A DNA stretch of 64,000 nt. Origin: Saccharothrix australiensis. Lineage in GTDB: Bacteria > Actinomycetota > Actinomycetes > Mycobacteriales > Pseudonocardiaceae. Each line of letters opens with the position of its first letter. Position 1 is the first letter of the stretch. Under the pieces are notes generated by a model. That model was given only the letters and a program-made list of their open reading frames with translations. It ran no database searches and was not told the DNA's origin. Where the stretch lies: positions 124,001 through 188,000 of the forward strand of contig NZ_RBXO01000001.1 in the NCBI RefSeq assembly GCF_003634935.1. Direction: 5' to 3'. The translations under genes and the position numbers were made by a program. Below are positions 40,919-45,692 of this stretch, piece by piece.

Positions 40919-42133
40919 ATGGGCGGCTTTTCGCTGGAGCTGAACGAGGACCAGGTGGCCCTGCGGGAGTGGGTGCACGGGTTCGCGAAGGACGTCATCC
41001 GCCCCGCGGCGGCCGAGTGGGACGAGCGGGAGGAGACGCCGTGGCCGGTGATCCGCGAGGCCGCGAAGATCGGCCTGTACGGGTTCGAGGCGCTGGCGAC
41101 GTGGTTCTCCGACCCGATCGGCCTGTCCCTGCCGATCGCGACCGAGGAGCTGTTCTGGGGTGACGCGGGCATCGCGCTGGCCCTGATGGGCACCGGCCTG
41201 GCGGCGGCGGGCATCTTCGCGTCCGGCGAGCCCGAGCAGCTTGCCGAGTGGGTGCCCGAGTGCTTCGGCACCGAGGACGACCCGAAGCTGGCGGCGTTCT
41301 GCGCGTCGGAGCCGCAGGCGGGGTCGGACGTGGCGGGCTACCGCACGCGCGCGGTCTACGACGAGGCGACCGACGAGTGGGTGCTCAACGGGCAGAAGGC
41401 GTGGGCCACCAACGGCGGCATCGCGAACGTCCACGTCGTGACCGCCGTCGTCGACCCGGCGCTCGGGTCGCGCGGGCAGGCGGGTTTCATCGTGCCGCCG
41501 GGCACGCCGGGCTTGTCGTCGCCGGGCAAGATCCGCAAGCACGGGATGCGGGCCTCCCACACGGCCGACGTGTTCCTCGACGACGTGCGCGTGCCGGGCC
41601 GCTGCCTGCTGGGCGGCAGGGAGAAGCTGGAGGCGCGCCTGGCCCGCGCCCGCGAGGGGCTCCGGGCGGGTGGGCAGGCGGCGATGGCGACGTTCGAGAC
41701 GACCCGGCCGACCGTCGGGGCGATGGCGGTGGGCGTCGCGCGGGCGGCCTACGAGTACGCGCTGGAGTACGCGGGGGACCGCGAGGCGTTCGGGCGGAAG
41801 ATCATCGAGCACCAGTCCATCGCGTTCGACCTGGTGAACATGAGGACCGAGATCGACGCGGCGCGCCTGCTGGTGTGGCGGGCGGCGTGGATGGGGCGCA
41901 ACAACGTCCCGTTCACGGCGGGCGAGGGTTCGATGTCGAAGCTCAAGGCGGGCGAGGTCTCGGTGTGGGCGACGGAGCGGGCGATCCACATCCTGGGCGG
42001 TGCGGGGTACACCCGCGAGCACCCGGTGGAGCGGATGCACCGGGACGCGAAGATCTTCACCATCTTCGAGGGGACGTCGGAGATCCAGCGGTTGGTGGTG
42101 GCCAGGGCCATTTCCGGGCTCCACATCAAGTGA
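40919..42133 (+). CDS. Acyl-CoA dehydrogenase, 3' end rebuilt by the island attachment site
   Basis: 404 residues in the standard ACAD fold (LELNEDQVALREWVHGFAKD; FAD-side motif CASEPQAGSDVAGY; glutamate in TIFEGTSEIQRLVVARAIS). It oxidises an acyl-CoA to its enoyl form. The last 81 bp are duplicated at 45612-45692, where the native terminator remains. The gene thus ends in the left copy of an integration site. The other copy encodes IR instead of IK at the end, so function is probably kept. Confidence 0.92.
   Translation: MGGFSLELNEDQVALREWVHGFAKDVIRPAAAEWDEREETPWPVIREAAKIGLYGFEALATWFSDPIGLSLPIATEELFWGDAGIALALMGTGLAAAGIFASGEPEQLAEWVPECFGTEDDPKLAAFCASEPQAGSDVAGYRTRAVYDEATDEWVLNGQKAWATNGGIANVHVVTAVVDPALGSRGQAGFIVPPGTPGLSSPGKIRKHGMRASHTADVFLDDVRVPGRCLLGGREKLEARLARAREGLRAGGQAAMATFETTRPTVGAMAVGVARAAYEYALEYAGDREAFGRKIIEHQSIAFDLVNMRTEIDAARLLVWRAAWMGRNNVPFTAGEGSMSKLKAGEVSVWATERAIHILGGAGYTREHPVERMHRDAKIFTIFEGTSEIQRLVVARAISGLHIK
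42053..42133 (+). repeat. Left 81-bp duplicate (attL-like)
   Basis: 79 of 81 bases match 45612-45692. It runs from ATCTTCACCAT to the ACAD stop. Together they bracket the 3.5-kb low-GC island. Confidence 0.85.
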
Positions 42134-42681: not shown

Positions 42682-42700
42682 CCCGGTCGATGTACAAGCG

Positions 42701-43415
42701 GTGACCACAAATCGCGTGTCGGTGGACGACCCCGAGGTCTTGCGCGGCATCCTAGCGACCACCGACGCGCTGTTCCTCGACTTCGACGGTCCTGTCTGCT
42801 CCGTCTTCGCCGGGATACCCGCTCACCTTGTGGCTGCTCAACTGCGTGATGTCCTCAAAGATGGAAGTCACACCGCGCTGCCACTTGAGGTTGAGAAGAC
42901 TGACGACCTTTCGAAATATTCCGTTTCGCTGCAGTCAAAGGCTATCAAGAGGCAACCTACGTAGAAGCTGCACTGAGAGCTCATGAGATGGAAGCCGTAC
43001 GACTCGCAGAGCCTACTACGGGGCACACGAGGTTATCCGTCAACACTCGATGCTTGGCCGCGCCATAGGAATTGTGAGCAACAACAGTCGTTCCGCAATC
43101 GAGGCATATGTCCGACTCCACGAACTCGGCGAGTACGTCGACTTTATCGCCGCACGCGACACCGCCGATCCATCAAAGCTGAAGCCCGCTCCACACCTAC
43201 TCGACAAGGCGATCAAAGGTGTCGGGGTTAGTCTGTCGAGGTGCACATTCGTGGGTGACTCGACAACCGACATACAGGCCGCTAAACGATCGAGTGTGAA
43301 GTCGGTCGCGTTCGCGAATAAGGCAGCCAAACTGGCGACCCTTGCATCCAAGATGCCTGACGCGATGGTGACTTCTATGGATCGATTCCTTCCTGCGAGT
43401 CGCCATCTTCAGTGA
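42701..43415 (+). pseudogene. HAD-family hydrolase with two frameshifts
   Basis: From GTG 42701 the N-terminal motif I reads DALFLDFDGPVCSVFAG. Near 42905 the frame shifts to PFEIFRFAAVKGYQEATYVE, and near 43020 to AHEVIRQHSMLGRAIGIVSN. The later part has motif II (IVSNNS), KPAP and motif IV GDSTTDIQAAK. All parts together form one phosphoglycolate-phosphatase-like HAD. Either the gene is dead or the assembly has two indels. The tail overlaps the 386-residue gene by 41 bp. Confidence 0.8.
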
Positions 43416-44535
43416 AGCTGAGGTACAACTCGTCTACTGGGTGACATCTCGACGGTTGCGAGATCGTCAAGTGACCCCGGTCGCGCCCAACCTCACCTTC
43501 TGCGATTATTGTCCGAGCTTGTTTATGCCAGTCTACTGCCATCCGGTAACGCGGATACGGCAATCGAATGGTGATTTCTGCATGCCTGCCGTCCCGCACG
43601 GTAGCAATAGTAATGTACCCATCCGGGTCAGGATCTTCGTGACGCAGAGCCACAATCGGTCCGGTGAAAGTTCGCGGTGGCTCGATCCGGTTTTCCTGAA
43701 GTTTTCTTGCTGCGGTTTGCACAACCTCCTGCGCCTCGACAGGGAGCTCGACGCGTTTCGGAATATTGGTTGGCGTGCGTACCGCATCAGCCCATGTGAA
43801 TATCGTTTCGAGTTCAGCAAGCGCAGGCTGTGCGAGCACGTTACTTACCGCCCTGCACAGCTCTCGACTCACGCCGACCTCGACGGCGGAATACAAAACA
43901 TCGATAGACGGCTCCACCGCTGGCTCAATAATAAGCTGTTGGATAGCCGCCAACGACTGTGCCAGAGTCCGGACCGCGCGCCGCTCAAGCGGTTCTGGCG
44001 TTCTCTTATCGACATCGAGAAGGGCGACCTGACTCTCGGTCTTACTTGGAACCTCTGATAGTGGAACCAGTACAGGAATGATGAAAGAACCGTTCTTAGT
44101 GTGGCCCATACGAGCGCCACGAACTATCTCATAGCTAAGTCGGGAATAATTTCCACGTAGGTCACCCTGGGGCCGGAGTGACGTACTAGCCGCACTTCGA
44201 AGCATCATTCTTGCAGACTTCATCATCGCCGACGCCGTATCGAGCGGAATCGAATCACTGCTTCGCGTGTCGACCACTGCTCGAAAATCCGTGACATCGG
44301 TTCGATAGTATCGAATCTTCTCCGAGAGCCGTTCGGGCACAGTTTCACGGAATGACGCCAGTCGCTCGACTATCCCGACGCGGAAGTCAGGGTCGTCGTT
44401 AGAGGGAACCGCAATGGATCGACCGTCCCGTACCCACAGGCTGCCTGCCGGACCAGGAGGACTCTCTTGCCAGCCTTCGTAGCTCAGAAAGGTCCGGATC
44501 TCACTTAGACTAGGGACCGCGTATTGCCCCCTCAT
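43375..44535 (-). CDS. 386-residue protein of unknown function, partner of DUF4365
   Basis: Starts MRGQYAVPSLSEIRTFLSYE and reads GWQESPPGPAGSLWVRDGRS, then a helical region (MMKSARMMLRSAAST; GHTKNGSFIIPVLVPL). It ends in a beta-rich module (TFTGPIVALRHEDPDPDGY; ITIATVRDGRHAEITIRL) with an OB-fold look. The codon usage is AT-richer than its neighbours. I recognise similar proteins as an uncharacterised actinobacterial family. Its ATG overlaps the DUF4365 stop (ATGA, 44532-44535), so the two act as one unit. A role in defence is inference from context. Confidence 0.75.
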   Translation of the reverse strand: MRGQYAVPSLSEIRTFLSYEGWQESPPGPAGSLWVRDGRSIAVPSNDDPDFRVGIVERLASFRETVPERLSEKIRYYRTDVTDFRAVVDTRSSDSIPLDTASAMMKSARMMLRSAASTSLRPQGDLRGNYSRLSYEIVRGARMGHTKNGSFIIPVLVPLSEVPSKTESQVALLDVDKRTPEPLERRAVRTLAQSLAAIQQLIIEPAVEPSIDVLYSAVEVGVSRELCRAVSNVLAQPALAELETIFTWADAVRTPTNIPKRVELPVEAQEVVQTAARKLQENRIEPPRTFTGPIVALRHEDPDPDGYITIATVRDGRHAEITIRLPYPRYRMAVDWHKQARTIIAEGEVGRDRGHLTISQPSRCHPVDELYLSFTEDGDSQEGIDP

Positions 44536-45056
44536 GCCGTCATTCCCTGCTCAGCAGGAGTAAAGCATGCGACAACGTCCTTATGCCACTCAGTCAGAGT
44601 TTCTGCAGTAAATCTTTGCGCCTTAGGAATGCTTATCCTGTCAGTTACGATTCCAGTGTTAACACGGACCCAGAAAGCAGCCGACCGGTGATCAGTCCCA
44701 ATCGCTGGATGGGCAATCCATTCCGTGTTCAAGTCGTGCTCGAGTATCACAAGTACTACATAGACTGGAACCTGAGCCGCGCTCCACTTCTGCCGCCAGG
44801 AGACGTCACAGGGCCAACTAGCAGAATTTCCCGCAATCGTGAACTTGGAGGTGCATTTAACCTGCACGCGTGCCGAGGCCGGAAGATATTGTATCTCGCC
44901 ATCGACGGCCAGTACGTCTTCGTCGGGCGAGGTCTCGATGAAACCGATGCCAGCTTGGCTGCATATGGATCTGACGTATGCGACACCATACCGAGCCTTC
45001 GCCGCACTATCGTGCAGCGTCGCAACGACAGCGTTGCCATCCCCCGCAGCTAACAT
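44532..45056 (-). CDS. DUF4365-domain protein (PD-(D/E)xK nuclease-like)
   Basis: 174 residues. AKARYGVAYVRSICSQAGIG is followed by DEDVLAVDGEIQYLPAS and RVQVKCTSKF. This D...D...(Q)xK arrangement is that of DUF4365, a restriction-endonuclease-like fold. The C-terminal half includes PVYVVLVILEHDLNTEWIAH. It is the first gene of the pair. Predicted DNA or RNA cleavage is inference from the fold. Confidence 0.8.
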   Translation of the reverse strand: MLAAGDGNAVVATLHDSAAKARYGVAYVRSICSQAGIGFIETSPDEDVLAVDGEIQYLPASARVQVKCTSKFTIAGNSASWPCDVSWRQKWSAAQVPVYVVLVILEHDLNTEWIAHPAIGTDHRSAAFWVRVNTGIVTDRISIPKAQRFTAETLTEWHKDVVACFTPAEQGMTA

Positions 45057-45486
45057 CGGTTCATCCTCCGTCGATACCGTCCGAAGTGAAATCCTCCGGA
45101 CAGGTGGTTCACGGTGCTTACCGGACCATCGCTCAGCGGGTCGTCTGTGTTGCAGAACTTGGCTCTATGGGATCAAGGCGCGCCGGCTTCGCTCCGCCCG
45201 TCGGCCGCGCGCGGAGTCGGTGCACCAGGCTGGCACGGCGGCGCACCACAGCGGCGGGTGCCTGACCTACAGCAGCTCCCAGCGGCCCGACTCGGGACGA
45301 TCGCGCGGTCATGGCGGTTGGCAGCGCTGGGCGCGGCGTTCGGCTGCCGCGACGGCTTCGCCGCCTTGCCAACGGGAAGGCCACTCGGCAACAGCACCAG
45401 GCGCAGGATGCGTGAAGGGCGTCGCTCAGCCGGCCGTGCGTAAGGCACAGCTAGCCGCAGCGACGCCCTTCGTGGAGATCAGCCGC
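45057..45486. other. Island segment without recognisable gene
   Basis: 430 bp: upstream region of the DUF4365 gene, then GC-rich debris with a 12-bp hairpin (45414-45425 with 45460-45471). I find no coding stretch with bias. Confidence 0.4.
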
Positions 45487-45505
45487 CAGGCCGTCTCCAG
45501 GCCGT
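45487..45505 (+). repeat. Inner direct repeat, right copy
   Basis: CAGGCCGTCTCCAGGCCGT; pair of 42145-42163. Confidence 0.7.
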
Positions 45506-45611
45506 GAGGTGTCGGAGAGGGTTGATCAATAACGACGAACGTTGACCAGGTATGCGCAGGTCAGGCCGCCATTCCACGCCGAAGCGCCAGGTCCGCCCAG
45601 ACCCGGCGCAA

Positions 45612-45692
45612 ATCTTCACCATTTTCGAGGGGACGTCGGAGATCCAGCGGTTGGTGGTGGCCAGGGCCATTTCCGGGCTCCACATCAGGTGA
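45612..45692 (+). repeat. Right 81-bp duplicate (attR-like) of the ACAD 3' end
   Basis: Encodes IFTIFEGTSEIQRLVVARAI and the stop without a start. It is followed by the gene's native terminator, so this is the original 3' end. Confidence 0.85.

What the first reader, a model, noticed from the sequence alone, without database searches (positions are those of the whole stretch)
43375..45056. Two-gene DUF4365 + unknown module in a mobile island: candidate new defence system
A DUF4365 nuclease-like protein (PD-(D/E)xK-type acids, QVK motif) overlaps by 4 nt a 386-residue protein of unknown function. Both sit in a low-GC island with a phage-type integrase remnant. Both reading frames are intact although the neighbouring integrase and HAD genes are broken, which suggests selection for the module. 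Coupled nuclease plus large partner in an island is the usual profile of an anti-phage system.
Basis: partly seen in the sequence, partly recalled or inferred. Interest (0 to 1): 0.8.

Follow-up and report, generated by a model that had tools for sequence, protein, structure and literature searches.

The report
Likely nuclease–sensor anti-phage gene pair
A two-gene module, a DNA-cutting enzyme subunit plus a larger protein with a probable single-strand-binding domain, rides in a decayed mobile element of a soil bacterium and probably protects against phages; it belongs to a catalogued but apparently uncharacterised candidate defence family.

Summary
Gene A (44532-45056, minus) is a DUF4365 nuclease with a D52-Q65-K67 triad; gene B (43375-44535, minus) overlaps it by 4 nt. 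Both match PADLOC's candidate system PDC-M02, so the pair is not new, though I found no paper on its function. The island is a decayed pSAM2-like integrative element between 87-nt repeats of the 3' end of an acyl-CoA dehydrogenase gene; related elements at that site carry other defence-like cargo in the same slot. A sits directly upstream of B in 46 of 51 B loci, plasmids and a prophage included. Neighbours hold more defence genes than controls: clear counted by protein, only suggestive counted by locus. A's predicted fold matches the DREN nuclease of SPARDA; B's model ends in an OB-fold-like domain (weaker evidence). Best reading: B senses phage or foreign nucleic acid and unleashes A. Against a purely mobile defence gene: a related pair with an intact triad is fixed beside thrS in most genomes of a genus taken to be Streptomyces (123 of 150) and beside electron-transfer-flavoprotein genes in Nocardia. 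Activity is untested.

The parts
44532..45056 (-). Gene A: DUF4365 / DREN-type PD-(D/E)xK nuclease subunit, 174 aa
   Evidence: Pfam PF14280 1.1e-12; PADLOC PDC-M02A 4e-15; Foldseek match to SPARDA chains, best 7.3e-6
44901..44903 (-). codon of D52 of gene A, the presumed catalytic aspartate
   Evidence: D in 99 of 100 aligned A rows, 96 of them distinct; corresponds to D41 of NbaSPARDA (PMC12205087, passage)
44856..44864 (-). QVK motif (Q65, K67) of gene A
   Evidence: Q in 100 of 100, K in 99 of 100 rows; corresponds to Q60 and K62 of NbaSPARDA
43375..44535 (-). Gene B: PDC-M02B protein, 386 aa, probable recognition or regulatory subunit
   Evidence: PADLOC PDC-M02B 2.8e-70 over residues 8-370; model mean pLDDT 76.8
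43438..43674 (-). C-terminal OB-fold-like domain of B (residues 288-366, strand-strand-strand-helix-strand-strand)
   Evidence: secondary structure of the model; PDB matches led by chains I recall as OB folds, E 3.8e-3 to 3e-2; residue range inferred from topology, the tool gives none
42047..42133 (+). attL-like repeat: 3' end of the acyl-CoA dehydrogenase gene
   Evidence: 87-nt direct repeat, 95% identical to 45606-45692
45606..45692 (+). attR-like repeat
   Evidence: sites with one copy only in relatives, for example G022/L168
42134..42693 (-). remnant (3' part) of a tyrosine integrase gene
   Evidence: 84% nt identity to the gene of the intact 408-aa integrase of G015; only residues 234-408 are matched (Phage_integrase in Pfam)
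42692..43391 (+). remnant of a HAD-hydrolase gene of the element, in three frames
   Evidence: tblastn with the intact HAD genes of the G015 and G008 elements
45150..45690 (.). attR-proximal segment shared with related elements
   Evidence: 71-73% nt identity to the G017, G015 and G008 elements over 45180 to about 45690
40919..42133 (+). acyl-CoA dehydrogenase gene, the integration target
   Evidence: Pfam; 23 of 25 genus genomes, own included, at E<=1e-150

Best explanation
A and B form a two-subunit anti-phage (or anti-mobile-element) system of the PDC-M02 candidate family, carried as cargo in a decayed actinomycete integrative element. A is a DREN-type PD-(D/E)xK nuclease that is inactive alone. 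B is the sensor: its N-terminal region (with the RxGHTxxGS motif) would hold A, and its C-terminal OB-fold-like domain would bind single-stranded nucleic acid exposed during phage replication or element entry. Binding would change the complex, probably by oligomerising A as in SPARDA, and A would cut invader DNA or degrade nucleic acid without specificity, stopping the infection or the cell. Shown here: conserved gene order, conserved nuclease triad, A's fold match to DREN, defence genes near many copies, and the element structure. Inferred: physical complex, OB-fold ligand, trigger, substrate and outcome.
For: PADLOC candidate models for both proteins. A lies immediately upstream of B in 46 of 51 B loci chosen by a B match, 21 with exactly 4 nt overlap even with the earliest start, and in 29 of 35 loci of a second set that shares 4 genomes with the first. 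Triad DQK in 98 of 100 A rows. All 11 PDB hits of the A model with E<=1e-3 are SPARDA chains; catalytic D41/Q60/K62 of NbaSPARDA correspond to D52/Q65/K67. B model: PDB hits led by OB-fold chains; the two BFVD hits with E<=1e-3 are a full-length Leptospira phage LE1 protein, 3.6e-18, and an Arthrobacter phage ssDNA-binding protein, 9.2e-4; the LE1 gene follows an A homologue, 4.2e-24. Neighbours at E<=1e-15: at least 15 of 117 flanking proteins match PADLOC models against 2 or 3 of 117 control proteins, one-sided Fisher p 0.003. Plasmid copies beside type I-E CRISPR genes in S. aurantiacus and beside DUF262 and Abi genes in Entomospira; prophage copy. Cargo slot of sister elements: NACHT protein (G008), DUF4411 plus IrrE-like protein (G015).
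Against: No activity data of any kind. No PDB hit of B reaches E 1e-3, and most of B has no relative among solved structures by sequence. Counted by locus the neighbour test is only suggestive: 12 of 32 loci with a hit against at most 3 of 20 control regions, p 0.07; 10 of 32 without the two generic kinases, p 0.16. A fixed, syntenic pair under purifying selection in Streptomyces-like genomes, and fixed copies in Nocardia, fit a house function as well. Two other PADLOC candidates, PDC-M63AB and PDC-S04, showed no defence in their native host (PMC12409345, passage), and validation is pending for most such candidates (PMC12988326, passage). The cargo comparison rests on four elements, and the 186-aa cargo of G017 matched no family.
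Confidence: 0.5

Rival explanations
1. House function in DNA or RNA metabolism: A and B are a nuclease and single-strand-binding pair for repair or processing, mobile copies being accessory versions.
For: A core B in 123 of 150 genomes of a genus taken to be Streptomyces, and in named S. morookaense, Kitasatospora xanthocidica and Streptacidiphilus carbonis; exonuclease-A-B-thrS order in 30 of 30 retrieved loci, the best-matching ones; beside ETF genes in Nocardia; median dN/dS 0.14 (A) and 0.24 (B); core A triad intact in 36 of 36.
Against: Patchy elsewhere: 12 of 99 genomes, own included; plasmid and prophage copies; defence genes near many copies; no core match in 27 of 150 genomes at E<=1e-40 and partial matches in some; decayed in some Nocardia; core B lacks the RxGxTxxGS motif (0 of 25), so the core pair may have changed role. 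S. morookaense, K. xanthocidica and S. carbonis hold both a core and a second copy.
Confidence: 0.2
2. Restriction of modified or unmodified DNA without a methylase (type IV-like): B reads a chemical mark or sequence and A cuts there.
For: PD-(D/E)xK nuclease with a large partner; no methylase among the island ORFs scanned; a type IV/DUF262-like gene near one copy (L075).
Against: OB-fold-like domain rather than a known modified-base reader; no base-reader family found in B.
Confidence: 0.14
3. Toxin-antitoxin or element-stabilising module: A is the toxin and B restrains it.
For: Tight overlap and carriage on plasmids and integrated elements.
Against: B at 386 aa is large for an antitoxin; fixed chromosomal copies exist.
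Confidence: 0.1
4. Non-functional passenger of a decaying island.
For: Integrase and HAD genes are broken; no rep or tra gene was seen in the island; a near relative of B in G031 is interrupted.
Against: Both frames open over 560 codons with the triad kept.
Confidence: 0.04

Closest known systems
PDC-M02 (PADLOC-DB candidate, models PDC-M02A and PDC-M02B)
   Same: Both proteins match the models, B over nearly its full length, adjacent and in the usual order
   Different: No difference found; I saw no function reported in the searches made
SPARDA (short prokaryotic Argonaute with DREN/DUF4365-APAZ nuclease)
   Same: Nuclease fold and catalytic triad
   Different: No APAZ domain found on A and no Argonaute partner; B is unrelated by the searches made and carries an OB-fold-like domain
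Actinomycete integrative and conjugative elements of pSAM2 type (RepSA)
   Same: att repeats, integrase remnant and HAD gene shared with a G015 element that carries RepSA, an FtsK-type protein and a GntR regulator
   Different: The window copy lacks rep, tra and most of int; its target is the acyl-CoA dehydrogenase 3' end, while tyrosine integrases of such elements often use tRNA genes (PMC3218068, passage)
SSB / PriB / RPA OB-fold proteins
   Same: Predicted topology of B residues 288-366
   Different: Weak structural scores only; no sequence match in the PDB at E<=1

Membership tests
PDC-M02 | A matches PDC-M02A | tested here: met
   best 4e-15, 14 PDC-M02A models hit
PDC-M02 | B matches PDC-M02B | tested here: met
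   best 2.8e-70, residues 8-370
PDC-M02 | the two genes are adjacent | tested here: met
   4-nt overlap; PADLOC's own system rule was not run
PDC-M02 | anti-phage activity | not testable with these tools
   needs phage assays
SPARDA | DREN/DUF4365 nuclease with D, Q, K triad | tested here: met
SPARDA | APAZ domain fused to the nuclease | tested here: not met
   A is 174 aa and DUF4365 spans residues 23-159; no other Pfam family found
SPARDA | short Argonaute partner | tested here: not met
   B has no Argonaute hit in Pfam, in the 25 of 35 PADLOC hits shown, or among PDB sequences
Restriction-modification | cognate methyltransferase beside the nuclease | tested here: not met
   no methyltransferase among the five island ORFs scanned; a gene elsewhere in the genome was not sought
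Toxin-antitoxin | toxicity of one gene relieved by the other | not testable with these tools
   needs expression tests
pSAM2-type integrative conjugative element | att repeats flanking the island | tested here: met
pSAM2-type integrative conjugative element | intact int, RepSA and Tra genes | tested here: not met
   int and HAD remnants only in the window; int, RepSA and an FtsK-type gene are present in the sister element of G015

The most novel reading that the evidence does not exclude
A new activation logic for DREN nucleases: instead of a guide-loaded Argonaute, an OB-fold sensor protein that recognises exposed single-stranded nucleic acid gates a SPARDA-type nuclease, and this module has been fixed at least twice as a chromosomal gene pair, next to thrS in Streptomyces and its kin and next to electron-transfer-flavoprotein genes in Nocardia, while still travelling on plasmids, prophages and integrative elements.
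Probability: 0.33. Interest if true: 0.7.

Novelty: new member of a known kind. Interest (0 to 1): 0.5.

Why it matters
The pair gives a catalogued but apparently uncharacterised candidate system a testable mechanism: a SPARDA-like nuclease triad in A and a probable single-strand-binding domain in B. The Streptomyces core copy makes the question directly testable in laboratory strains: is it a fixed immune gene pair, or a house nuclease from which a defence system was built (or the reverse)? The acyl-CoA dehydrogenase site also looks like a reusable place to find defence cargo in this genus.

Tried and rejected
Newness: rejected, PADLOC lists both proteins. SPARDA membership: rejected, no APAZ and no Argonaute found. 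Sequence link of B or A to solved structures: none at E<=1. Weak Pfam matches of B relatives (BldD-like, UBA, YbjN, VQ) are scattered and were not used. The single best PDB hit of B is a chain of a pertussis toxin-antibody complex, E 3.8e-3; I read it as an OB-fold resemblance only. Viral contig scans: 5 of 8 run, two loci found, L131 and L132. First count of neighbours: 88 PADLOC families against 2; rejected as a measure, since one kinase alone matches 27 models and one DUF262 protein 25; counted by protein and by locus instead. Confidence in the best explanation was lowered from 0.55 to 0.5, and the house rival raised to 0.2, for that reason. In one search the acyl-CoA dehydrogenase query was translated out of frame by mistake; its rows were not used, the repeat and MerR rows were.

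Papers, all seen as listings or passages, none read whole: PDC-M02 is in 0 papers; DUF4365 in 10, passages of two seen; SCO1532 and SCO1533, recalled as the S. coelicolor core pair, in none, SCO1531 in one. Term searches inside PMC13118837, PMC12255303, PMC3218068 and PMC13092281 gave nothing on the pair; passages of PMC12409345, PMC12988326 and PMC11811056 seen. Listings only. The 14 control genomes of the family search gave no match.

Full report
Two open frames lie on the minus strand, A at 44532-45056 (174 aa) and B at 43375-44535 (386 aa), sharing 4 nt. A is DUF4365 at 1.1e-12; B has no Pfam family above its cut-off. GC falls to 54-63% from 42 to 45 kb; third-position GC is 0.56 and 0.55 for A and B, 0.98 for the acyl-CoA dehydrogenase gene next door.

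What the island is. An 87-nt direct repeat, 95% identical, bounds it: 42047-42133, the 3' end of the acyl-CoA dehydrogenase gene, and 45606-45692. That gene was found in 23 of 25 genomes of the genus, own included. The genus appears to be Saccharothrix: two same-genus genomes, G017 and G010, have contigs of the same lengths as named Saccharothrix records (an inference). I read 20 of the 22 other sites; one is cut short by its contig end and one gave no MerR match. Five show a second repeat copy: G017, G015, G008, G009 and G023. Some have the downstream MerR gene almost directly after the site, for example G022. The G015 element, 10.7 kb, keeps a 408-aa integrase, a helix-turn-helix protein, a RepSA protein, an FtsK-type protein and a GntR regulator. 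The window island shares its integrase 3' part (84% nt with G015), its HAD gene (in three frames in the window) and its last 500 bases (71-73%) with these elements. Between the HAD gene and that last segment lies the cargo: A and B in the window; DUF4411 plus an IrrE-like protein in G015; a 1085-aa NACHT protein in G008; an unmatched 186-aa protein in G017. Genes at the same site without a second repeat include a GmrSD/DUF262 protein in G021 and a HATPase protein similar to type II restriction models in G016. So the pair is cargo of a decayed integrative element at a site that repeatedly collects defence-like genes.

What the pair is. PADLOC-DB holds both proteins as candidate system PDC-M02: B at 2.8e-70, A at 4e-15. 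B homologues came from actinomycete genomes (12 of 99, own included; 54 of 394 class genomes with a B model, own included), plasmids (13 records, three of them paired duplicates by organism) and phages (2 records; 4 with a spirochaete query). In 51 B loci including the window and six core loci, A lies directly upstream on the same strand in 46; the five without are L047 (cut at the record end), L048, L080 (a fragment), L088 and L089. In five core loci the adjacency was read from gene calls; A is in pieces or short in L046 and L082, and B is interrupted in L057. L085 was fetched but gave no B frame and is not in the 51. In 35 further loci A lies beside B in 29 (in two pieces in L113, L114 and L129); L108 has B without A, L125-L128 hold broken B pieces without A, and L130 gave neither. 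Four of these 35 are genomes of the first set.

Fold and active site. In 100 A rows, 96 distinct, D52 is kept in 99, Q65 in 100, K67 in 99, and all three in 98. The model of A (mean pLDDT 75.9) matches SPARDA chains in all 11 PDB hits with E<=1e-3, best 7.3e-6. The NbaSPARDA paper gives D41, Q60 and K62 as the catalytic residues of DREN, also called DUF4365 (PMC12205087, passages); TmuRE-Ago, another DUF4365 system, degrades DNA without specificity after target recognition (PMC10810196, passages). The model of B (mean pLDDT 76.8, pTM 0.62) ends in strand-strand-strand-helix-strand-strand. Its PDB hits are led by chains I recall as OB folds, many of them SSB, PriB, RPA, PolC or RecG, but the best E is 3.8e-3 and none reaches 1e-3. 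In BFVD two hits reach 1e-3: a full-length Leptospira phage LE1 protein, 3.6e-18, and an Arthrobacter phage ssDNA-binding protein, 9.2e-4. The LE1 gene lies just after a gene that matches the A profile at 4.2e-24. I found no named fold for the first 280 residues of B.

Neighbourhood. I took up to two genes on each side of 32 loci outside the Streptomyces core, 117 proteins of 80 to 1499 aa (44,378 residues), and 117 proteins drawn at random from 195 called in 20 regions elsewhere in the same genomes (38,368 residues). Gene calls are from a script of my own. At E<=1e-15, 12 of the 30 longest neighbours scanned match PADLOC models (30 of 32 loci): DrmA, DrmB twice, DruA, a type IV-like DUF262 protein, PDC-M55C twice, mad8 three times, and two kinases, which are generic. 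With a third DrmB and two DrmC proteins that makes at least 15 of 117, against 2 or 3 of 117 controls; one-sided Fisher p 0.003. By locus it is 12 of 32 against at most 3 of 20, p 0.07, or 10 of 32 without the kinases, p 0.16. So the association is real for several copies but not proven for the family by this test. A Streptomyces plasmid has the pair beside type I-E CRISPR genes, and an Entomospira plasmid beside DUF262 and Abi genes.

What speaks against a purely mobile defence role. In an unnamed genus that I take to be Streptomyces, a divergent pair was found with a core B query in 123 of 150 genomes, a few partial. The same core B is in named Streptomyces morookaense (68% identity), Kitasatospora xanthocidica and Streptacidiphilus carbonis, each of which also has a second copy, and not in Saccharothrix carnea. 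In the 30 best-matching loci the order exonuclease, A, B, thrS holds in 30 of 30; Pfam supports the names exonuclease, threonyl-tRNA synthetase and the SsgA-family gene nearby. Core A keeps the triad in 36 of 36; median dN/dS over 60 random pairs is 0.14 (A), 0.24 (B) and 0.17 (the part of thrS held). Core B lacks the RxGxTxxGS motif in 25 of 25; by a relaxed pattern 59 of 71 other B rows keep it, by the strict RLGHTxxGSF or RMGHTxxGSF 44 of 71. In Nocardia the pair follows two electron-transfer-flavoprotein genes in several species, intact in most of those seen and decayed in some. In a tree of 83 B proteins the core rows and the Nocardia rows each form one group; the window protein groups with two copies from its family, support 100/95, one of which (G031) is interrupted. 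A house function, or a core pair that has changed role, is therefore a live rival.

Mechanism. Most likely B holds the DREN nuclease A in check and releases it on binding exposed single-stranded nucleic acid. The nuclease part is well supported; the ligand, the complex and the outcome are inference. Other PADLOC candidates have failed when tested (PDC-M63AB and PDC-S04; PMC12409345, passage), so activity must be shown.

Noticed in passing
L076:8497-13605, L086:7993-13485, L081:5242-10594, L064:5160-10503: In one B subclade a conserved P-loop ATPase of about 900-1070 aa lies next to the pair (four loci, 37-52% identical to each other; MADS mad8-like C-terminal part in three; HerA-type domain in L076); in three of them a related 187-232 aa protein stands between, giving a four-gene A-B-C-D order.
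   Followed up: partly
window 42047-42133 and L156-L175: The acyl-CoA dehydrogenase 3' end is a recurrent integration site in this genus, with varied defence-like cargo between it and a MerR gene.
   Followed up: partly
L090-L095, L177-L206: Conserved locus exonuclease-A-B-thrS near an SsgA-family gene in Streptomyces-like genomes; function of the pair unknown.
   Followed up: partly
L098-L105, L125-L128: Nocardia copies at one chromosomal place, decayed in some species: a natural series from intact to lost.
   Followed up: no
L078, L079: Two genomes of one unnamed genus carry the pair between the same flanking genes, possibly a third fixed place.
   Followed up: no
L045:398-2160: Mycobacterium abscessus prophage prophi102-2 carries the pair as its genes 1 and 2 at the left end of the record.
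   Followed up: no
L156:3616-4176: 186-aa low-GC3 cargo protein in the sister element of G017 matched no Pfam or PADLOC family; possibly another defence gene.
   Followed up: no
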